A stretch of DNA of 64,000 bases from Brachypterus glaber (lineage: Eukaryota > Arthropoda > Insecta > Coleoptera > Kateretidae): the NCBI GenBank assembly GCA_958510825.1, contig OY294049.1, forward strand, positions 21,693,536-21,757,535, in the 5' to 3' direction. A program made the translations under genes and the position numbers. The notes beneath the pieces were generated by a model, which saw only the letters and a program-made list of their open reading frames with translations, was not told the DNA's origin and made no database searches. Position 1 is the first letter of the stretch, and every line of letters starts with the position of its first letter. This document shows positions 4,301 through 63,470 of this stretch, one piece after another.

Positions 4301-4518
4301 CGCCATTTTAATGATTCCATATATAAATCTATAGGCCTATAGTAATCTATATGGCAGCCATATAGGTTTTATATGGAATTACTGTATTGATTCCATATAG
4401 AAGCATATAAGCCTATACTGCCCTACGACGCTAGAAAGCAGTAACTCCATTTGTTTCATAGCAGCGTTTTCAAAATATTACATTAGAGTTGACGTCAAAA
4501 CGTCGCTAGGCGACAAAT
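4301..4518. mobile_element. Left half of a MITE split by the LTR element
   Basis: Carries CTGCCCTACGACGCTAGAAA then GCAGTAACT (4419-4446). Its inverse, AGTAACTGCTTTCTAGCGTA then GTAGGGCAG, occurs just beyond the second LTR at 12494-12521. The LTR retrotransposon therefore landed inside this palindromic element, duplicating AAAT (4515-4518 and 12489-12492). The same family recurs near 37940-38080. Confidence 0.8.
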
Positions 4519-5621
4519 TGTAACAGAGTGGTCACCCTGTATATATTGAGTATTTATATTTTTATTTTAATGGTTATTGAACGTGACATAGCATTGTTCT
4601 TGCTGTTTGTTTTTACAGATGCTAATATTATTAGTATTTGGGAAGCTTGCATTTTGTGTAATTGAGGCGTTTACATAAAAAGGGTGTACATTTTTATTAG
4701 ATTAATTAATTGGTTATTTCGGTTTTCTTAATTAATAAATATGGGAATATCTTTAATGATGTTGTTTTAGATACTGGCAATAGTTAGGGATTGTTTGTAA
4801 AAATGGTTTTTTCTACTTCGAAGCAATGTCATGAAAATCAATATCAATCAATATGTAGAAGTAGTTTTTTTAATCATTTCGCTTAATTAAATTTAAATTC
4901 ATTTTCAGTAATTTAAAGTAATTCAGTTTATTTTGATCGAAAACTCCTCAGATATTTTCGTTAATAGTTTTATGACTGGTATATCGGCATCTCTGGGAAG
5001 GGAAATCTTTGCCTGTGTTTAGTTATGGTCAAAAATGGGATTCGGAAATATGTAGTCGTCTAGTAAAGTTGGGTCTTAGGGAAGTTGTAGAATTAACGTA
5101 ATATGTGAAAATTTAAAGTAAAATTTAGAGTCGCGAGTATAGAAATATCTGAAGGGTAAAGATGCTATTTAATCATAATTTTTTCATTTCAAATTAAAAT
5201 ATTTTGTTGTTTTATTTGTTTTAAACTTTTCATTTTTCTTTTATTAAATTCTTTTAATTGTTGTTTAATCCTTTTGTTTTATTGGAAAGATATATTTTAA
5301 TTAATTTAAAATATATTTGAAGTTTTTTTACCTTTCACATTTCTATATAAAGTTAGTGATATATGAAGACATCGAAGAAACATCTAAGAAAGTCAGATAA
5401 GTATTAAGTAGTAATTAGATTCTTATATTAACATTTGTAATCATATAATATATGATATTGTGGTAATATTATGTAATATTATTACTGGTGGCACGCTACC
5501 CAAATAGCAACTATACAGCTATTTGTATTTGATACGCCTCCAAATAATAGTGTGTGGTTCTAAATTAATGCCTTAGATAATTAATATTTTTGGCTATAAT
5601 TGGGACCAGCAACCTATTACA
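4519..5621 (+). repeat. 5' LTR (1103 bp)
   Basis: Starts TGTAACAGAGTGGTCACC and ends CCAGCAACCTATTACA. It matches the 3' LTR except for three visible differences: TTATTGAACG versus TTATTAAACG, one extra A in CATCTAAGAAAG, and AATTTAAAATAT versus AATTTTAAATAT. It would hold promoter and polyadenylation signals; I could not place a TATA box with confidence in this AT-rich context. Confidence 0.95.
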
Positions 5622-5920
5622 AATTGGTGGACAGCGGAAACGCGTTAAATAACGCTGGGTTTAATTTTTTTTACGTTTTTATAGTTTTTTTTTGCGGTTT
5701 TTACGAAGAATTTTCAGTTTTCACATATTTCTGTTTTTTTTGGTAACCGATTCATTAGTTTTACGTAAAAGTACGAAAAGGTATAAGTTTTTATTTTTTT
5801 GCGGATTTAAAAATCGAGTTTTTTAGCGATTTCCTTTGCGGTCGTTTTTTTTTAATTTTTTTTGTGGACTAGAAATATTTGATTTTTCTCAAGGTAAATT
5901 TATTTATTTTTTTTAACAAA
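5622..5920 (+). promoter_or_regulatory. Putative primer-binding site and 5' leader
   Basis: TGGTGGACAGCGGAAACG begins at 5625, the position expected for a tRNA primer-binding site whose TGG pairs with the tRNA CCA tail. I do not assign the tRNA. The leader is T-rich. A possible splice donor (AAGGTAAAT, around 5891) lies just before the first ATG. Confidence 0.55.
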
Positions 5921-7423
5921 ATGTGTTGCGAATGTTGCAAAAAGATGACTCAAGTGAAAAAGAGCAATTTTTCCTTTGACTTAGTAGAAAATTTTTCAGG
6001 TGGTCCCGATTTTTCATTATTTTTTACTGCCATAGATATTGTTGCTAAAAATAATAGTTTGACGGAGCAAGAGACAATAGATTTAATTATTTTGAAATTA
6101 AGAGGTCAGGCATTGGTTTATTTTCACGCTTTACGAGAAAATGAACGCCCCACTAATTTGGTGGATTTAAAACAGTTTTTTAGTAGAATTTATACGAAAA
6201 AGGTTAATTTTTTTGATATTAAAAATGAACTGTCTACTTGTATACGTTTAAATGATGAACCGTTAGCAAATTTTGTAATTCGTTTAAAAATATTAGGAAA
6301 CAAAATGTTTTCAGATAAATTGAGTCCTAATGAGCAAACAGTTTATAATCGTCTTATCTTAGATCAGTTTTTTGAAGGTATAGACACAGTTTTAGCTAAT
6401 GAAATACTTAGTAGCGGTAAATTTTTTAGCGTCGATGAAGCATTGCAAGCTGGGGAGAATATACTAGAAATTAGAACTAGATTAATTAAACAAACTTTTC
6501 ACGATCAATTTATAGAATTTCAGGATAATCTCAAAATATCTGTTTTACAAAATGAAATAAATTATAATAATAATAATGAATTTTGCGGTAATAATAGTAA
6601 TAATGATAGAAACGGTTTTAATATTAATAGTAATTATAATTTTAAACCTAGGTATAATCAAACACGCAATAGGTACAATAATTTTTATGATAGGCGGAAA
6701 TTTCAAAGGCACAATCCGGTAGGAAATTTGGGTTTTTACAATTATAAATATGATAATACCATAAAGGGTACCGAAATTAGAGATCAGGATAATTACGAAT
6801 ATTTTAAATCAATTAATTATAAAGCGGATGTTTACAAAATTAAGGAAAAGTACCAAGACATATTTTTGTGCCCGGAAAATGTTTCTCTCGCTCACTGTGT
6901 TTCAGAAGATTTAGATATGAATAAAGGAATTGCAACTCAATTTAAGTCAAAATTTGGTAAATTAGATCAATTAAAAAATCAAAAAGTTCGTACAGGCGGT
7001 TTGGCAGTTTTGAAGGATAATGATAGGTTTATTTATTATTTGGTAACGAAAAAGTATTCATACGAAAAGCCGACATATGAAATTTTGTGGAAGACACTTT
7101 TAGAGCTAAGAAATCACGTAATTAAAAACAATGTTAAATATTTGGGTTTGCCAAGAATAGGATGTGGTTTAGATCAGCTTAATTGGGTTAAAGTAAAGGA
7201 AATGATTTGTTATATTTTTAAAGACGTTGATGTTAATATTACGATTTTCTCATATCCGCTAAAAGCAAGATTATCAGTTTATAGTAATTTAAATAGCCAA
7301 CAAGTACATTTTGAGTCGGATTATTATGGGACTAATTCCGAAAACGAATCACATATAATTACGCAAAATCCGGAAGTTAGCGGTACATTTTCAGGTAGAG
7401 ATGAATATTATATTAGGTACTGA
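5921..7423 (+). CDS. Gag-like protein fused to a TARG1/OARD1-type macrodomain
   Basis: 500 residues from the first ATG (5921). The frame is open from about 5879 but has no earlier ATG; a second ATG is at 5945. Residues about 22-190 resemble a Ty3/gypsy Gag capsid (FSGGPDFSLFF, LRGQALVYFHAL, a long helical stretch). Residues about 215-275 are an Asn-rich, Arg-rich linker that may bind nucleic acid; there is no CCHC zinc knuckle. Residues about 311-446 are a macrodomain: SLAHCVSEDLDMNKGIA, GGLAVL, RFIYYLVTKK and LGLPRIGCGLDQLNW. This is the pattern of TARG1, which removes ADP-ribose from acidic residues and cleaves O-acyl-ADP-ribose. The lysine in TKK (K377) and the aspartate in GCGLD (D418) are 41 residues apart, the spacing I recall for catalytic Lys84 and Asp125 of human TARG1. 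The N-terminus has an odd MCCECCKK cluster. The C-terminal about 55 residues are polar and unrecognised. No in-frame stop or shift. An active hydrolase is inference. Confidence 0.9.
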   Translation: MCCECCKKMTQVKKSNFSFDLVENFSGGPDFSLFFTAIDIVAKNNSLTEQETIDLIILKLRGQALVYFHALRENERPTNLVDLKQFFSRIYTKKVNFFDIKNELSTCIRLNDEPLANFVIRLKILGNKMFSDKLSPNEQTVYNRLILDQFFEGIDTVLANEILSSGKFFSVDEALQAGENILEIRTRLIKQTFHDQFIEFQDNLKISVLQNEINYNNNNEFCGNNSNNDRNGFNINSNYNFKPRYNQTRNRYNNFYDRRKFQRHNPVGNLGFYNYKYDNTIKGTEIRDQDNYEYFKSINYKADVYKIKEKYQDIFLCPENVSLAHCVSEDLDMNKGIATQFKSKFGKLDQLKNQKVRTGGLAVLKDNDRFIYYLVTKKYSYEKPTYEILWKTLLELRNHVIKNNVKYLGLPRIGCGLDQLNWVKVKEMICYIFKDVDVNITIFSYPLKARLSVYSNLNSQQVHFESDYYGTNSENESHIITQNPEVSGTFSGRDEYYIRY

Positions 7424-10400
7424 CTGTTGTTTAAAAGGTAAATTGAGTTAGAATAACTAGACCGAAGTTTTTTTGTATATGAGTAGAAACGTAGTTTTGT
7501 GTTATTACGATATTTTTCTAGGTAAAAAAGATCAGAAAATTGTTGAAAATATGTTTTCCTTGTAAGTTATTTTCGAAAATATTATTTGTTTGAATTTGTT
7601 GTCTTTATTTTAAAGTTTTGTTTATACAAACCAGTATTTACGTTTTTTTTTTTCACCCCAAAATCTTAAGCGTCACTTATTTTAGGCCCTAACTGCCCAC
7701 ATGTAAAAACATGTGCTGTGAACCTTTTTGTGCAGGTCAAGAATTTGTACATTTAAACCCTTTAATTCAATATTTTGTGTAAAGTATTTTTAAAATTTAT
7801 AATGAAAATTTAAGATAATAGACGTATTAATATTTTACAAATGAGAAAAGCATAATTTCATGTTAAAAATAGTTTTTAACGTCATTAAGCTTAAAAAAAG
7901 CTTATTTTAACGTTTAGCGTAAATATTATTGAATAATTTTTGAAAGTTAATTTTCTGATCTATTTTTTGTGTATAATTGTCATTTAGCTACAACTCGCTA
8001 ATATTTTTTTTAGATAAAGTAGTAATCTACTAAAAAGACCATACGTTTTTTTTAAATATATATATATATTTTTTTTTTCATTGAAGTGGCAAAGTTTTGT
8101 TTAATTTTGATAAACCTAATTATATTGGATTTGTTTTAAAAAGTTTATGTGCAGAGAGTAGTTTTGAAATACAGTTTTAATATTTGCAGTTATGAAGAAA
8201 TTTAGTTATAACAAGGCTTAAAATTGGCATATGTTACAGTTAAATATATTTTCCAAGAAATTATTAGTTTTTAACGTTTGTTTTATTTTTAAAATATAAA
8301 TAAATGTTTTTTGAAGTTATTTTTGCAGTTATCGATAGTACTCAAATGTTAAGTAATAATTATTGCATATGTTATGTTTTATGTCTGTATGTTAAGGTGG
8401 CCACCGAGAATAAATGTGCGTATGATTGGTTGAATAAAAGTCTGTGAATGCTAATGCAAAATTTTATTGTTTTGCGCATTAAAATGCGTAATTTCTTGTT
8501 TTAAAAAAGTTGTAGTTTTTTTTGAAGATGCTATCAATAACTGACTATTTTTAAAAGTTTTAAGTATTTTGAAAATTTTGTTTGTTAAATTACTCTTAGT
8601 TTTTTTTTTAAGAAAAGCCTAAATTGATATTATAAAAATTAAAATTTATTTTTTGCACATAATTTTGTTTATTTTGATTTTTTACGAGTTTTTTTTTTAT
8701 AAAATTACATTTTTTCATTATCGTAATAAGAATAAGAAACGTTTACTTTGGTTATAATAAATTTTTAGTATATGAGTTCTTGGGTTAGCGAGTTATTTTT
8801 TTAAGTAATAATGAGTAATTACGTTTTTTTTTTTTTTTGAAAAGTTTGTGATCTACATAAATTTCAGTTAGAAAAATAGGAATTGATTTAATTTTTAAGG
8901 TTTGAAGCTGAAACCTCTGTTTAAAACAGACTAATTTATCAATGAAAGTATTTTGCAATAATATTTGAACCTAGAATTCTAAATGAAAGATTGTAGCTAT
9001 ATTTTTTTAAACTGATTAACAACCATAAGATATGGACTAATCAAGTATAGCTTATATCATTTGTAGTGTTACAAACACGTTTTCTTTTGAAAAGTTTTGA
9101 GTGGAAAATATCGTAATAAATATTTGTTAATTTTTCAGAATGATGTATTAATGTAATAATTTGATTAAGTTTTATTGGTTTATATAGTAGGAAGTATTTA
9201 AAGTTTTTAGAGATTTCGAAATGAATTATAAAAAGGTATAGTTATAAAAGAGGTTTTATTGAGTTTATAGGTATATTTTTATACATTTGCTTCAAAAGTT
9301 AAGCAAATTAGGAATTTTAAAATGAGATTTTTGTTTATATTATACAGCCGAAATGAAATTTTTAGCATAAGCTAAAAGTGTTAGTATGGTATACCATAAA
9401 AGTATTGTTTTAATTAAAAGTATTTACCGGTATAATAAGTAAAATAAGGTAAAATAAGTGAAATAAAATAATTTGATAAATAAATTAGTAAATATTGGGT
9501 ATAATAAGTAAAAGAATAGGTACATATACATATGGGTAGATAAATAAGAGAAGTAAGGTAAAATAAGGAAAATAAAATAAGTTAAATATGTTAAATATTG
9601 AGTAAAATAAATAAACGAATGAGTAAATAATTAGGCAATAAAGAAATGAATAAATAATCCAACTAGTATTTTTGGTTATCGTTACGTGATCATTATCCTA
9701 ATTGAAACAAATTAAGACTAGTTACAGGAACGCTATAGCTACGTTGTAATTGCAATATGGAATAAAAATAAGGGTAATAATTACTATCTTGTTACATGTT
9801 TGTAACTTAGTGCAGAACGATCTCGTTACAAAACAGTTACTACGTATCCACGTAATTGTGTGGTAGTTATTTTTTACTGTTTCGTAATGTATAAAGTTTT
9901 AAAATCGTAGTTGTTACCTATATTATAACCAAATAGAAATGGTTAATTTAATTATGGTATTTTTTTTTTATGGCGACAGTATTGCACATTTTAAATCATT
10001 TTTGTAATATAACCCTGGTAATAATTTTGTTGAGTAGCTGCGTAATTAAGCAACTTTGTTATTTCTATTGAGTAAAAATGGATAAAAGTAATGCTTTTGG
10101 TAGAATATACAATTCTGTTACTAATCAGAATATGTTTAATTGTTTTAACACCGTAAAGTAATATAATAATTGAGATCTACGTAATAACAACTCATGAATA
10201 ATAGCGGTTTCAATTATTTAGGTAAAATTCACAAAGAATGCTAGTTGAGAGTACATACAAATATGAGAATAAAGAATAATTGTGTTAAAGATTAATTACT
10301 TAATTAATTAATTAATTAGAGTACTAGTACATTAGTTATATTTAGTAAGAGGTACCTCACGAACACAAACACAAATACAAACTTGAATCAAATTTTAGCT

Positions 10401-11371
10401 GAAGTTTTTAATGAAGCTTTTTGACATTTTTTTGAAGTTTTGTTTAGAATAGAGTTTTATGAAACAGTTAAAATAAAGAAATCAAATGTTTGTAATTAAG
10501 TTTAAATTAATAATGAAACTTAAGGTAAACGTTAAAGGTAGTAACTTACTATTTTGTGTGTATACATATGTGTTTTTTATTATGAGAAAAGTTTTGCGTT
10601 TATTAAGGAATTAATTAAATTTTAGGTATAAATAGTAATGCTTTGTTTCTAATGTTTTTTATGAGTTTTAGGTTTGGTTTGTCAATAATGATTCTGTGTT
10701 GAGAAAAGATATTTGAATAACGAGAAGTTTTTGTCAAGTTAAGGTTGTTGGTTGTATCCAAACTTCAGGAGTTTGTGGAAGTGCTGACAATGTGATCAAA
10801 AGTAGTTAGTAGTTAAACTTTAAGCTTGCTGAAGTTACCTTAAAGGTTGGGTAAAGTTAAAAGTTTTTCTAGGATTTTGAAGTTATTATGGAGTTGTACT
10901 GAAGTTACACTGATACACCGATTCTTGACACGCACTTGATATTTTCCTGTTTTCCCGTGAAAACTGGGGAAATAAAATTTAGTTTGAACGTATTAATTTT
11001 TTTTTGTTACAGTTCCGTTCCTTTTTCTTTTGTTTTGGTTGTTTTCCATATTCATTCCGTAGATGATGGTAACGCTAATAGAGAAGAATAATATTAATCA
11101 CTTTAGATTTTTGTGCTACTTGGGATTGAATTGAGTAGGTTCTAAAGTAGTTCATTAATTTGAATATGGGTTTTTATTATAAGAGACTGATTGAGTAGGT
11201 CTCAAGAAGAATTAGCATTGGATTGTTCGAGTATCGGAGTTAGGAGTGAAGATTATAGAAGAAAGAAGAAGATGATGTCCATTTCAAAAGATTTATATTG
11301 CCATTTTGTTTTGTATAAATAGTATCTAAATCAATTAATTTAAAGTTTTGTTCAAATTAATCTGATTTTTT
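7424..11371 (+). other. Long non-coding, C-poor interior of the LTR element
   Basis: About 3.95 kb between the Gag-macrodomain stop and the polypurine tract. All frames are closed by frequent stops, and I see no RT, integrase or protease motif. The plus strand is rich in T, A and G but poor in C. Around 9425-9660 there is a low-complexity tract of AAATAAGTAAAATAAGG-like words. This stretch replaces the region where pol should lie. Confidence 0.8.
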
Positions 11372-11386
11372 AAAAGGGGGGAGTAT
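11372..11386 (+). promoter_or_regulatory. Polypurine tract
   Basis: AAAAGGGGGGAG followed by TAT lies directly before the TG of the 3' LTR, the usual plus-strand priming site of LTR retrotransposons. Confidence 0.8.
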
Positions 11387-12488
11387 TGTAACAGAGTGGT
11401 CACCCTGTATATATTGAGTATTTATATTTTTATTTTAATGGTTATTAAACGTGACATAGCATTGTTCTTGCTGTTTGTTTTTACAGATGCTAATATTATT
11501 AGTATTTGGGAAGCTTGCATTTTGTGTAATTGAGGCGTTTACATAAAAAGGGTGTACATTTTTATTAGATTAATTAATTGGTTATTTCGGTTTTCTTAAT
11601 TAATAAATATGGGAATATCTTTAATGATGTTGTTTTAGATACTGGCAATAGTTAGGGATTGTTTGTAAAAATGGTTTTTTCTACTTCGAAGCAATGTCAT
11701 GAAAATCAATATCAATCAATATGTAGAAGTAGTTTTTTTAATCATTTCGCTTAATTAAATTTAAATTCATTTTCAGTAATTTAAAGTAATTCAGTTTATT
11801 TTGATCGAAAACTCCTCAGATATTTTCGTTAATAGTTTTATGACTGGTATATCGGCATCTCTGGGAAGGGAAATCTTTGCCTGTGTTTAGTTATGGTCAA
11901 AAATGGGATTCGGAAATATGTAGTCGTCTAGTAAAGTTGGGTCTTAGGGAAGTTGTAGAATTAACGTAATATGTGAAAATTTAAAGTAAAATTTAGAGTC
12001 GCGAGTATAGAAATATCTGAAGGGTAAAGATGCTATTTAATCATAATTTTTTCATTTCAAATTAAAATATTTTGTTGTTTTATTTGTTTTAAACTTTTCA
12101 TTTTTCTTTTATTAAATTCTTTTAATTGTTGTTTAATCCTTTTGTTTTATTGGAAAGATATATTTTAATTAATTTTAAATATATTTGAAGTTTTTTTACC
12201 TTTCACATTTCTATATAAAGTTAGTGATATATGAAGACATCGAAGAAACATCTAGAAAGTCAGATAAGTATTAAGTAGTAATTAGATTCTTATATTAACA
12301 TTTGTAATCATATAATATATGATATTGTGGTAATATTATGTAATATTATTACTGGTGGCACGCTACCCAAATAGCAACTATACAGCTATTTGTATTTGAT
12401 ACGCCTCCAAATAATAGTGTGTGGTTCTAAATTAATGCCTTAGATAATTAATATTTTTGGCTATAATTGGGACCAGCAACCTATTACA
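11387..12488 (+). repeat. 3' LTR (1102 bp)
   Basis: Near-identical partner of the 5' LTR, ending CCTATTACA and followed by the AAAT target duplication. Confidence 0.95.
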
Positions 12489-12585
12489 AAATGAGTAACT
12501 GCTTTCTAGCGTAGTAGGGCAGTATAGCAATCTATATGGCTGCCATATAGAATACTATAGTCTATAGGGAATTGCCAGTTTGAAA
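12489..12585. mobile_element. Right half of the MITE split by the LTR element
   Basis: AGTAACTGCTTTCTAGCGTA then GTAGGGCAG is the inverse of 4419-4446. ATATGGCTGCCATATAG follows, matching inverted words near 4350. Confidence 0.75.
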
Positions 12586-26405: not shown

Positions 26406-27535
26406 CTAAAGAATATGTTCAAAATGACCTCCACCAACTTGAACACATAGAGCAGCTCTTTTTAACAGACTTCTCCTGGCATTAATAATCATATTTGGAG
26501 TTACTGACTCAAGCGCTTCATGTATTCGGTCTCCTAGTTCTTCTACAGTGTCTGGCATATTTCTATACACTAAATTTTTTACATGGCCCCATAAAAAGAA
26601 GTACATTGGAGTGAGATCAGGGGATCTAGGAGGCCACCTTCTGGGACCCCCACGGCCTATCCAACTGTTTGGAAAACTGATGTCGAGTTGGCTTCTTGCC
26701 GTTTCTGAGAAATGCACTGGACTTTCATGTTGAAACCAGATGTTATCCACATTTGCCAACCTTTGAAGTGGGATGTCATCAATAAGATTTTCCACTTCAT
26801 CCCTTAAGAAGTTAGTGTAGGTTTTGCCATTCAATCTGCCAGGAAACTCATGGGGTCCAACCTAAAAACAAATATTTTAAGCATTTTATGGTGGTTTATT
26901 TCTCAAAATAACTTGCTATAGCATCTCCCAATATTCCGGCCCAAATATTTAAGGAAAACCTTCGTTGGGGATTTCCTTGCCTGAAGGCATGGGGATTTTC
27001 CTGTCCCCAAACATGAAAATTCCTTGAAATAAAAAAACCATATCTTTGAAACCCAGACTCATCCGTAAAAAGAATGCTTTTTACAAAGTTTTCATTTTCT
27101 TGATGTTTCTGCAAGAGCCATGTGCAAAATTCGACTCGTAAAGGATAGTCCTCCGGTGTCAAGCATTGTACTCGAGTGTAATGAAAGGGATGTATTTTTT
27201 CATCTTTTAGAATTCGTTGAACAGAGGTCTTACACATATCAAGATTTCTAGCCACGATACTAAGGCTTGTTTCAGGTTCTACTTCAAAAGCCTGAATGAC
27301 AGCTTCTTCATTATCAACAGTTCTTGCAGTTCGCGGAGCGCCTCCAATCTTTTTTTTGTTTGGTTAAATTTCCAGAATTTCTTGCCCTTTGCACCAATCT
27401 TAAAATAACATTTCTGCTAGGATGTTCTCTATTGGGAAAACGAATAGAATATTCTACAGATGTAGCTGAAGCACTCCGGCCACATTCGCCATATAAAATT
27501 AGCATTTCGCAATACTCTTCTGAAGTAAACATCAT
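26406..27535 (-). pseudogene. Tc1/mariner-type transposase, broken and with lost catalytic residues
   Basis: Three minus-strand frames in order. The N-terminus (27535-27314, FTSEEYCEMLILYGECGRSA) is the helix-turn-helix form of DUF4817. A frameshift in an A-run leads into the frame with VARNLDMCKTSVQRIL (27255-26896), which includes ILFTDESGF, carrying the first catalytic Asp. After 'GDAIASYFEK' comes a stop and about 40 bp of non-coding sequence ending TTTTTAG. Reading resumes with GPHEFPGRLNGKTY and continues to HFEHIL (26406). In this family the second Asp sits where WFQHESPVHFS now has Glu, and the third in RSPDLTPxDFFLWG is Tyr here (RSPDLTPMYFFLWG). The enzyme would be dead even without the frameshift. 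The 40-bp gap could be a small intron, but no clean GT donor keeps the frame. Confidence 0.85.
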
Positions 27536-61418: not shown

Positions 61419-63102
61419 AAAAGTATATTCGTAGATCCAATATTCCATGATAATGTTGCAAGATATATTCATATATATTCATACATCAATCAAGTGCCAA
61501 AAATGATATTTAGAAAAGGTAACTATCCTACATGGTATACGCCGGAAATTATTAATAAAATCAAAATAAAAAACTTTTATCATAAAAAATACAGAAAATA
61601 TATATTAACCTATTATAACACTAAATTCAAACAATTGAGATACGAAATAAAAATTGATATTCGTTTAGCTTATGATAACTTTGTTTCTAAAGCCCAAGAT
61701 TCAGTCATTAATGATCCCAAGACATTTTGGAAATTCGCTAACTTAAAACGAAATAAATCTCGAATACCACAACAAATGTTTAACGGTGACACGTTATGTG
61801 AAACACCACAGCAAGTGGTAGACGGTTTCGCTAGCTATTTTGGTAATGTTTTTCAAGATCCCAGTCAAATAAATAATAACGTAGAAATCAACAACTCCCA
61901 AAATATTAATGTTAATTCATTCACTGTAGAAGACATTCAGTCAGCATTAAGTAAACTGCCCAACAAATCTACAGCAGGATATTTGTTGAAAGATTGTGCA
62001 GATATTTTTATTTACCCGCTTTTAATACTTTTTAATTTAATATTAAAAAAATCTTTTTTTCCAAATATTTGGAAATTTGGAAAGGTGTGCCCTATCTTTA
62101 AAAAAGGCGACCCATCGATAATTTCCAACTATCGTCCAATAACCATTTTATGCAACTTCTCAAAGGTTTGGGAAATGTGTTTGTATAGCCGCATCTATCC
62201 GTTGGTAAAAAATATGATTTCAATCAATCAGCACGGTTTTATGGAAAACCGCTCTACTGTCACTAATCTTGTTCAATTCTCTAATTATGTTTCCAATGTA
62301 GTTGACAATAGAGGACAGGTAGATGTGGTGTATACGGATATATCAAAGGCCTTTGATCGTATCGATCACCCACTTATTGTCCATAAATTGTCATTGTTTG
62401 GCTTTAGCAATCCTCTCTTAAAGCTTTTTATTTCATACTTATCTGATAGGTTTTTATACGTGTTTTACAATGGTTTTAAATCATACCTATTTTTAGCTAA
62501 GTCGGGAGTTCCTCAAGGGTCTAACCTTGGACCCCTATTATTCCTATTATTCATAAATGATCTGTCTGGATTTATTCAATGTCTATTTCTTCTTTTTGCA
62601 GATGATTTAAAACTTATGCTACAAATTACCGACATAAATGATTGCATTAGACTTCAAACAATCCTCAATGAATTAAACAGGTGGTGCACATTAAATAACC
62701 TAGAATTGAATATCTCAAAATGCAATGTTATGACTTACACTCGCAAAAAAAAACCTGTCGTATTTGATTATGCAATAAATTCTATAACTCTAGAAAGAAT
62801 TTACAGCTTTAAAGATCTGGGCGTTATCTTTTCAAATGATTTTTCATTTAAAGAGCACATTAATTATATATCTTCATCTTCAATGAAAACTGTTGGTTAC
62901 ATTATTCGAAACTATAAGGAATTTAACAATGAACTTGCACTTAAAACACTGTACAACTCTTTTGTACGTTCTAGAATGGAGTACTGTGGTATTGTCTGGT
63001 CACCCTACTACCAGTCTCACAAACAGCAGCTTGAAAGAGTGCAAAAAAGGTATTTAAAGTTTTTATATCTTAGGGTCTCCGGCTCATATCCAGTGAGAAA
63101 CT

Positions 63103-63159
<57 letters not shown>

Positions 63160-63470
63160 TATTATCTCAATTCAATTTTAACTCACTTGAAACTCGTAGG
63201 ATAATATCAAGTATTAAATTTTTATATAACTTAATACATAATAAAATAGATTCTTCTTTCATTTTAAGTCAGTTAAATCTTACAATTCCAAGAAATCCAA
63301 GGAATTCATTACCTTTTTACAACACCAATGCAAGAACTAATGCAGCATACTGTCCTATATTTGGTATGATGCATAATTTTAATGAATATTGTTATGATTG
63401 TGATATAAATTTTGATAGTTTTAATAGTATTAAAAATATTATTATTTTAGGCATTTGGACTCTTAATTAG
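61419..63470 (+). CDS. Jockey-type non-LTR retrotransposon ORF2, RT part, 5'-truncated
   Basis: Open from 61419; the first ATG is at 61503 but is internal, since residues before it (SYINQVPKMI) already match the family linker before RT. Numbering from the GTG at 61494: linker YPTWYTPEI (11-19); RT KVCPIFKKGDPSIISNYRPI (197-216); palm motif TDISKAFDRIDH (281-292); VPQGSNLGPLLF (339-350); FADD (368-371); thumb DLGVIFSNDFSFKEH (441-455); tail QKRYLKFL and SLETRR. The catalytic Asp residues (282, 370, 371) are present. Two oddities: after KST-AG the usual PDGIP-type segment is missing (about 6 residues, in frame), and a (TA)n microsatellite adds a run of Ile-Tyr pairs at 539-555. The endonuclease is missing, so the copy is probably dead although RT is unbroken. 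RT would copy element RNA at nicked chromosomal DNA. Confidence 0.85.
63106..63158 (+). repeat. (AT)n microsatellite inside the coding frame
   Basis: About 26 AT units without a stop, because TATATA reads only Tyr and Ile. It sits between the RT tail and the LLSQF...SLETRR block. Confidence 0.95.

What the first reader, a model, noticed from the sequence alone, without database searches (positions are those of the whole stretch)
5921..7423. Gag capsid-like region fused to a TARG1/OARD1-type macrodomain in an LTR retrotransposon
One unbroken frame carries a gypsy-like Gag and then a full macrodomain with SLAHCVSEDL, YYLVTKK, PTYE and PRIGCGLD motifs. The Lys of TKK and the Asp of GCGLD are 41 residues apart, as I recall for Lys84/Asp125 of TARG1. 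An ADP-ribosyl hydrolase built into a retroelement structural protein would be carried into the particle and could reverse host PARP marks on particle, RNA or integration site. That parallels the use of macrodomains by some RNA viruses, but the role here is inference. I do not know of a described family with this architecture.
Basis: partly seen in the sequence, partly recalled or inferred. Interest (0 to 1): 0.95.

Follow-up and report, generated by a model that had tools for sequence, protein, structure and literature searches.

The report
Retrotransposon Gag fused to ADP-ribose hydrolase
A probably insect genome carries a multi-copy jumping element whose only protein joins a virus-like shell protein to a domain of the kind that, in human cells, strips ADP-ribose marks; selection keeps the domain intact, which suggests that the element uses it to undo a host chemical mark while it copies itself.

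Summary
Window 5921-7423 is one unbroken 500-aa frame: a Ty3/gypsy-type Gag, an Asn-rich linker and a complete TARG1-type macrodomain (E 1e-40 to human TARG1; predicted fold 0.6 A from 4j5s; Lys84/Asp125 equivalents kept). It is not one odd copy: the genome gives 64 full-length matches to this macrodomain at 93-100% identity (the window's included), and 40 of 49 other fetched copies have an open Gag-macro frame. Between open copies the macrodomain (pN/pS 0.22) and capsid (0.35) look constrained; linker and tail less so (0.86). A relative (Gag 44% identical) has zinc knuckles plus PR-RT-RNaseH-INT and no macrodomain: here nucleocapsid and Pol are replaced by the macrodomain. Unexpectedly, other Ty3/gypsy families of this genome carry TARG1-type macrodomains in Pol, between RNaseH and integrase or after the integrase. 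I propose that these elements deliver an ADP-ribosyl hydrolase with the particle or integrase; substrate and activity are inference. Macro domains in fish endogenous retroviruses are in print; my ten searches found nothing on this architecture.

The parts
4515..4518 (.). left target-site duplication AAAT
4519..5621 (+). 5' LTR, 1103 bp, TGTAAC...ATTACA
   Evidence: (2 mismatches and 1 indel between the LTRs)
5625..5637 (+). candidate primer-binding site TGGTGGACAGCGG, 3 bases after the LTR
   Evidence: primer tRNA not identified
5921..7423 (+). Gag-macro reading frame, 500 aa plus stop
   Evidence: 40 of 49 other fetched copies have a frame of 495 aa or more
5921..6595 (+). Gag capsid-like part, residues 1-225 (boundary chosen by me)
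   Evidence: residues 9-198 are 44.5% identical to the Gag of L210; hhalign score 25.4 against a maximum of 18.6 in 40 shuffles, though its probability is only 5%; pN/pS 0.35
6596..6820 (+). Asn/Arg-rich linker, residues 226-300; no CCHC knuckle in the frame
   Evidence: pN/pS 0.86
6821..7258 (+). TARG1-type macrodomain, residues 301-446
   Evidence: pN/pS 0.22
7049..7051 (+). codon of Lys377, equivalent of TARG1 Lys84
   Evidence: Lys in 41 of 41 rows
7172..7174 (+). codon of Asp418, equivalent of TARG1 Asp125
   Evidence: Asp in 40 of 41 rows, Asn in 1
7259..7420 (+). C-terminal tail, residues 447-500
   Evidence: pN/pS 0.86
7424..11371 (+). non-coding internal region without pol
   Evidence: no stop-to-stop frame over 70 aa; no PR/RT/RNaseH/INT remnant; conserved at 89-94% in 6 of 6 other copies looked at
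11372..11384 (+). candidate polypurine tract AAAAGGGGGGAGT
11387..12488 (+). 3' LTR, 1102 bp
12489..12492 (.). right target-site duplication AAAT

Best explanation
SHOWN: a non-autonomous Ty3/gypsy-type LTR retrotransposon family whose only protein is Gag capsid + Asn-rich linker + TARG1-type macrodomain; the macrodomain stands where a relative with a full set of pol domains has its zinc-knuckle nucleocapsid and frame-overlapping Pol; among open copies capsid and macrodomain show fewer amino-acid than silent changes. INFERRED: Gag-macro assembles into virus-like particles (its own or mixed with a helper's), so that each particle holds many copies of an ADP-ribosyl hydrolase; reverse transcriptase and integrase come in trans from an autonomous element; the macrodomain removes ester-linked ADP-ribose from proteins, or from the ends of RNA or DNA, during reverse transcription or integration, where PARP1-type enzymes act on DNA ends (recalled). 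The Pol-borne macrodomains of the same genome, next to the integrase on one side or the other, point to the same stage.
For: TARG1 match E 1e-40, fold, Lys/Asp kept. 41 open copies: Lys 41, Asp 40; macro pN/pS 0.22 [0.11-0.42], capsid 0.35 [0.20-0.64], linker 0.86 [0.34-2.91], tail 0.86 [0.46-1.69]. In six copies the Gag and macro pieces have 0-3 gap bases against the window, the downstream 4 kb 109-260. Relative L210/L220 with CCHC knuckles, PR, RT, RNaseH, INT and no macrodomain. Pol families: macro after the integrase in A and B (Pfam rve and Macro both over cut-off in L128 and L136); RNaseH-macro-INT in L224/L226 and L225/L227; A against B the macrodomain is better conserved (67% identity, dN 0.22-0.23) than the integrase core (48-50%, dN 0.39-0.40). 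TARG1 removes ADP-ribose from proteins and from RNA and DNA ends (passages of PMC11088682; PMC4695847).
Against: No activity, particle, packaging or helper was shown. No autonomous element with these LTRs was found: the relative lacks the PBS, PPT and LTR-end motifs in the three stretches looked at, 10.6 kb; its own LTRs were not located, and its integrase match in L220 runs over two frames, so that copy may be broken. A passage of PMC10221186 says that insects lack most vertebrate PARPs and that insect-specific alphaviruses lost macrodomain activity, so a benefit in insects is not obvious. One of 41 rows has Asn at the Asp418 position. The pN/pS set was filtered for open frames (9 of 49 dropped), its pairs are not independent, and the linker's interval overlaps the macrodomain's. 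In the RNaseH-macro families the macrodomain is less alike (51-56% identity) than the RNaseH piece (57-64%).
Confidence: 0.5

Rival explanations
1. The macrodomain serves as a binding module that took over the nucleocapsid's job: it holds ADP-ribosylated (or plain) RNA and so packages the element's RNA; hydrolysis is secondary.
For: It sits in the place of the two CCHC knuckles of the relative (Pfam zf-CCHC 32.9 bits), and the window frame has no CCHC motif. An Asn/Arg-rich linker precedes it.
Against: Both catalytic residues are kept in 40 of 41 rows, more than a pure reader would seem to need. In Pol families the same domain sits beside the integrase, not in the nucleocapsid position.
Confidence: 0.2
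2. Counter-defence: the macrodomain strips antiviral PARP marks, as proposed for alphavirus and coronavirus macrodomains.
For: Repeated presence of TARG1-type macrodomains in retroelement proteins and in phage records (33 of 50,697) looks like a conflict function. SIRT6 mono-ADP-ribosylation silences L1 in mammals (passage of PMC4695847).
Against: Insects lack most vertebrate PARPs and insect-specific alphaviruses lost the activity (passage of PMC10221186).
Confidence: 0.13
3. Selfish competition: Gag-macro is mainly a shell that hijacks a helper's particles, and the macrodomain only stabilises or localises it.
For: No pol; 64 full-length macrodomain matches against one long row and one fragment of the nearest full-pol Gag type (L210, L213). 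Both counts are lower bounds.
Against: Does not explain why both catalytic residues are kept, nor the Pol-borne macrodomains.
Confidence: 0.1
4. Passenger: the macrodomain was captured by chance and has no use.
For: Some copies have frameshifts or stops (9 of 49 fetched copies lack a frame of 495 aa; 7 of 36 Pol-borne ones have a stop in the macrodomain).
Against: pN/pS 0.22 with the tail of the same protein at 0.86; Gag and macro pieces almost without indels beside indel-rich non-coding DNA.
Confidence: 0.04
5. Domesticated host gene family, not an element.
For: Intact frame.
Against: LTR pair with target duplication; of 40 scored LTR matches (691 candidates) 26 form 13 pairs 6.4-7.0 kb apart (my count); scattered copies; a host-type TARG1 exon lies elsewhere (L222).
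Confidence: 0.01

Closest known systems
Human TARG1/OARD1 (C6orf130), terminal ADP-ribose protein glycohydrolase
   Same: fold, 49% identity in the structural match, Lys84/Asp125 equivalents with 41-residue spacing
   Different: stand-alone host enzyme; here the C-terminal part of a Gag, without proven activity
Ty3/gypsy (Metaviridae) LTR retrotransposons
   Same: LTRs, 4-bp duplication, candidate PBS and PPT, Gag homologous to that of an element with PR, RT, RNaseH and INT
   Different: no zinc knuckle, no protease, no pol; macrodomain instead
TR-GAG non-autonomous LTR elements of plants (name and definition recalled; search listing only)
   Same: LTR element whose only gene is gag
   Different: animal host and an added enzyme-type domain
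[quoted passage not shown] 2009, known to me only through one passage of PMC4977317)
   Same: a retroelement that took up a macro domain
   Different: reported there as additional open reading frames of vertebrate retroviruses; here fused in frame to Gag, TARG1 type, in a pol-less element. Which macrodomain type the fish ones are I do not know
Macrodomains of alphaviruses and coronaviruses
   Same: viral use of a macrodomain against ADP-ribosylation (abstract starts); distant structural matches, 12-15% identity
   Different: in replicase proteins of RNA viruses (recalled); not TARG1 type by the structural ranking
Leptinotarsa decemlineata LOC111504128 (P0002) and the window genome's own TARG1-type exon (L222)
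   Same: closest macrodomains by identity (54%; 50%)
   Different: host-type genes (my reading) without Gag

Membership tests
Ty3/gypsy LTR retrotransposon | LTR pair with TG...CA ends, 4-6 bp target duplication, PBS, PPT | tested here: met
   primer tRNA not identified
Ty3/gypsy LTR retrotransposon | Gag homologous to Ty3/gypsy Gag | tested here: met
   44.5% identity, E 1.5e-54, to the Gag of L210, followed by RT and RNaseH, protease (RVP 24.0 bits, cut-off 20.7) and an integrase in the adjoining L220
Ty3/gypsy LTR retrotransposon | own PR-RT-RNaseH-INT | tested here: not met
   none in the element nor in downstream pieces of 6 of 6 other copies: a non-autonomous member only
TR-GAG type non-autonomous LTR element | LTRs plus gag, no pol (definition recalled) | tested here: met
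TARG1/OARD1 macrodomain family | sequence and fold | tested here: met
TARG1/OARD1 macrodomain family | catalytic Lys84 and Asp125 (roles recalled) | tested here: met
TARG1/OARD1 macrodomain family | hydrolysis of ADP-ribosyl-Glu or O-acetyl-ADP-ribose | not testable with these tools
   needs purified protein
Viral counter-defence macrodomain | reverses host antiviral ADP-ribosylation | not testable with these tools
   inference only

The most novel reading that the evidence does not exclude
TARG1-type ADP-ribosyl hydrolase domains are a recurrent functional module of animal Ty3/gypsy elements, taken up more than once and placed in different spots (in place of the nucleocapsid in Gag, after the protease, between RNaseH and integrase, after the integrase); they act on ADP-ribose marks at the integrating DNA ends or on the element's nucleic acid, so that host ADP-ribosylation is a general check on LTR retrotransposition in insects. 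In the window family a pol-less parasite kept only capsid and hydrolase.
Probability: 0.35. Interest if true: 0.92.

Novelty: new variant of a known kind. Interest (0 to 1): 0.82.

Why it matters
It makes a question directly testable: does ADP-ribosylation restrain LTR retrotransposons, and do the elements carry the eraser with them? The pattern inside one protein (capsid and macrodomain constrained, linker and tail much less) says that the enzyme-type domain pays its way in an element that has otherwise shed nearly everything. The Pol-borne versions in the same genome, beside the integrase and in one comparison better conserved than its core, suggest that this is not an accident of one family.

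Tried and rejected
Gag structure: single-sequence AlphaFold2 gave pLDDT 37.5, so nothing is drawn from it. Gag by profile: hhalign against the P0012-family N-termini (taken as Gags by eye; Pfam gives no Gag family there) scored above all 40 shuffles but with a probability of only 5%. Gag relatives in the 5.8-billion-protein set: none of 2028 candidates at E 1e-3; none in viral contigs (13 pattern matches, none confirmed). Macrodomain relatives in viral and prokaryotic contigs: 80 kept of 85 confirmed, and 41; none of the 121 loci matched the RT, INT, PR or Gag queries at E 1e-4. Rfam on the element: no match at gathering scores. Pol remnants in the internal region: none at E below 1 with the relative's Pol; weak, chance-like matches (best E 0.32) with other Pol queries. 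The INT control is void because the A copy used (L126) is broken there; redone with L128, L130 and L132 (L130 has one stop in the integrase piece). A single origin of the LTR-element macrodomains is not rejected (p-AU 0.32), window plus the P0012/P0029 set is near the limit (0.065), window plus P0008 not rejected (0.44), window plus the own Pol-borne set not rejected (0.41); so 'independent capture' stays inference. The tree puts the window with insect host-type genes with support 61/52 only.

Full report
WHAT IS THERE. The host is probably an insect: the nearest named macrodomain relatives include Leptinotarsa and Sipha, but I did not identify it. The element spans 4519-12488: LTRs of 1103 and 1102 bp with TGTAAC...ATTACA ends, AAAT duplicated at both sides, a candidate PBS 3 bases inside the 5' LTR and a purine tract before the 3' LTR. 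The LTRs differ by 2 substitutions and 1 indel, so the insertion is young. Its only stop-to-stop frame of 90 aa or more holds 5921-7423.

THE MACRODOMAIN. Residues 297-444 match human TARG1/C6orf130 at E about 1e-40; the next PDB macrodomains score 0.025 or worse. Pfam Macro passes its cut-off only when the domain is scanned alone (23.5 against 22 bits; 20.4 in the whole protein). The AlphaFold2 model (17 sequences) has pLDDT 92.4, and the eight best Foldseek matches are all TARG1 structures, E 5.7e-20 to 5.1e-17, ahead of DarG at 1.4e-9. K84/D125 of human TARG1 correspond to K377/D418 with the same spacing of 41.

THE GAG. Pfam alone does not settle it (PNMA 17.2 and Retrotrans_gag 12.7 bits, both below cut-off); hhalign against the P0012-family N-termini scores 25.4, the best of 40 shuffles 18.6, but with a probability of only 5%. 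The decisive result is L210 of the same genome: 44.5% identical over residues 9-198 (E 1.5e-54; 40% over 11-298), with two CCHC knuckles at its end (Pfam zf-CCHC 32.9 bits, cut-off 20.8), then a frame, overlapping it by about 105 bases, with a retroviral-type protease (RVP 24.0 bits, cut-off 20.7), RT (E 3e-90) and RNaseH (E 4e-46). The nearly adjoining L220 holds an integrase match that runs over two frames (E 2.6e-55), so this copy may be broken. The TARG1 profile found no macrodomain in L210, L220 or L221. The window protein keeps capsid and Asn-rich linker, has no CCHC motif and has the macrodomain where nucleocapsid and Pol would follow, in the Gag frame itself.

IT IS A FAMILY. The Gag query gave 107 match rows in the genome (128 of 216 candidates scored). 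The macrodomain query gave 150 rows (150 of 590 candidates scored, so a lower bound): by my count of the table, 79 rows belong to the window's family, 64 of them spanning residues 1-150 of the query at 93-100% identity (the window's own included) and 63 of those without a stop. LTR query: 40 scored of 691 candidates, of which 26 form 13 pairs 6.4-7.0 kb apart, 2 lie 12.6 kb apart and 12 are single in the list (my count). I fetched 49 other copies of the frame (L161-L209): 40 have a frame of 495 aa or more, 9 do not. In six copies whose downstream piece I fetched, the 4-kb internal region is 89-94% identical to the window's; their longest frames are 66-120 aa, and no PR, RT, RNaseH or INT query matched. 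So in all seven looked at, the pol-less form is the family's form, not a deletion in this copy.

SELECTION. Over 41 open copies including the window, mean pairwise pN/pS (bootstrap over codons) is 0.22 [0.11-0.42] for the macrodomain, 0.35 [0.20-0.64] for capsid, 0.86 [0.34-2.91] for the linker and 0.86 [0.46-1.69] for the tail; Lys377 is Lys in 41 of 41, Asp418 is Asp in 40 and Asn in 1. Caveats: only open copies were used, pairs are not independent, and the linker's interval is wide and overlaps the macrodomain's; the tail's does not. In six copies the Gag piece differs from the window by 0.5-2.8% mismatches and the macro piece by 1.1-3.8%, with 0-3 gap bases, the downstream region by 3.1-5.4% with 109-260 gap bases.

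MACRODOMAINS IN POL OF THE SAME GENOME. The Pfam Macro scan found 38 places: two (L122, L123) do not match the TARG1 profile and look like host genes; 36 do match. Grouped by macrodomain identity of 70% or more they form family A (15 places), family B (20 places, 67% identical to A) and L158. I read the context of A in L124-L129 and L132, of B in L133, L136 and L148, and of L158, not of each place. In A and B the macrodomain follows the integrase: Pfam rve 40.3 and 34.8 bits (cut-off 32.6) and Macro 32.8 and 33.5 bits in one open piece each of L128 and L136. In A an env-like frame follows (Baculo_F 67.7 bits, cut-off 24.1, in L129). Lys is kept in 35 of 36, Asp in 36 of 36; 7 of 36 have a stop in the macrodomain. 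Within B dN/dS is 0.17 (14 distinct sequences), within A 0.61 (13, very few substitutions). Between A and B the macrodomain (67% identity, dN 0.22-0.23) is better conserved than the integrase core (48-50%, dN 0.39-0.40); dS is saturated (2.05-2.82). L223, L224 and L225 carry RNaseH then macrodomain in frames of 1496, 1614 and 1567 aa, and the pieces after L224 and L225 match the integrase (E 2e-39 and 4e-19). There the macrodomain is 51-56% identical between families (dN 0.34-0.40) and the RNaseH piece 57-64% (dN 0.39-0.46), with dS saturated. Of the 71 rows at 39-50% identity, one (C4:38397048, L222) looks like a host-type TARG1 exon, 60-65% identical to P0002/P0003; of the other 70, 24 lie in frames of 1000 aa or more with no stop in the match (my count). 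I did not read the context of all 70.

ELSEWHERE. In the protein set (16 hits of 6514 candidates; 24 of 63) the macrodomain occurs in Ty3/gypsy-type proteins as RNaseH-macro-INT (P0008; P0029-P0036 in whole or part), RT-RNaseH-macro (P0009), macro-PR (P0010) and Gag-like-PR-macro (P0012, P0013, P0017-P0028, P0037 in whole or part; the Gag part by eye), and in P0038 after a PHD finger. No protein with the window's Gag came up (for the first 16).

ORIGIN. The own-genome Pol-borne macrodomains form one clade (100/96) and join P0008 and P0009 (82/80); the P0012 and P0029 types form another (100/99); the window sits with insect host-type genes, unsupported (61/52). By identity the window is nearest to Leptinotarsa LOC111504128 (54%). 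A separate capture of a host TARG1 by this Gag is the simplest reading, but a common origin with the other LTR elements is not rejected (p 0.32; p 0.41).

HOW IT MAY WORK. The macrodomain is in the Gag frame, hence presumably made at Gag level, unlike a Pol domain. With capsid constrained too, delivery in a particle is the natural reading. TARG1 removes ADP-ribose from proteins and from RNA and DNA ends (passages). The Pol versions beside the integrase favour a role at integration or on DNA ends. Against a simple antiviral-PARP story, insects lack most vertebrate PARPs (passage of PMC10221186); PARP1-type repair signalling remains (recalled). The target is unknown.

PRINT. Ten library searches (nine on macro domains and retroelements, one on TR-GAG) showed no description of a macrodomain in a Ty3/gypsy or Gag protein. 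One search listed only 20 of 394 papers, and of the listed papers of all ten searches I looked for passages in eight. One passage of PMC4977317 reports macro domain proteins in fish ERVs after Basta et al. 2009, which is not held. PMC12992720 on insect ERVs holds none of the macro terms asked for. Of all papers cited I saw passages, abstract starts or listings only. Most subscription papers are not in the library, so absence here is weak evidence.

Noticed in passing
L124-L129 (G000:C9:133585-136884, C1:41701532-41704831 and others): Family A: after the Pol-end macrodomain follows an env-like frame (Baculo_F 67.7 bits in L129): an insect endogenous retrovirus-like family with a macrodomain in Pol.
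   Followed up: partly
G000:C4:69503141-69511108, C4:39973140, C2:84441144, C19:4587790: Copies with similar stop patterns and a shifted frame in the Gag N-terminus recur at four loci while the rest is open (478 aa at three of them); one of them (C4:69503141) has LTRs that read 100% identical to the window's. This looks like spread of Gag-defective copies helped in trans.
   Followed up: no
P0038 (553 aa, source lgn): TARG1-type macrodomain between a PHD finger (Pfam) and a C-terminal part that looks to me like ORF1 of an insect LINE: perhaps a non-LTR element with the same module.
   Followed up: no
P0009, P0005, P0003: A second, degenerate macrodomain-like stretch follows the TARG1-type one in P0009 (RT-RNaseH-macro) and in host-type P0005; in P0003 the second match is not significant. 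Possible capture of a tandem pair.
   Followed up: no
P0007 (eukprot): Uracil-DNA glycosylase (precomputed PF03167) fused to a TARG1-type macrodomain in a eukaryote transcript.
   Followed up: no
L001-L121: TARG1-type macrodomains in 33 of 50,697 phage records and in many viral and bacterial contigs.
   Followed up: partly
window 26409-26861 and 26899-27363, minus strand: Broken mariner-like transposase frames (by eye).
   Followed up: no
window 61419-63467, plus strand: 683-aa frame with a non-LTR reverse transcriptase look (by eye).
   Followed up: no
L211 (C4:21383170-21388020), L212 (C2:35271323-35275667): Another Ty3/gypsy Gag family, 28-29% identical to the window Gag; the L211 frame passes Pfam for Retrotrans_gag (28.1 bits) and a CCHC knuckle.
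   Followed up: partly
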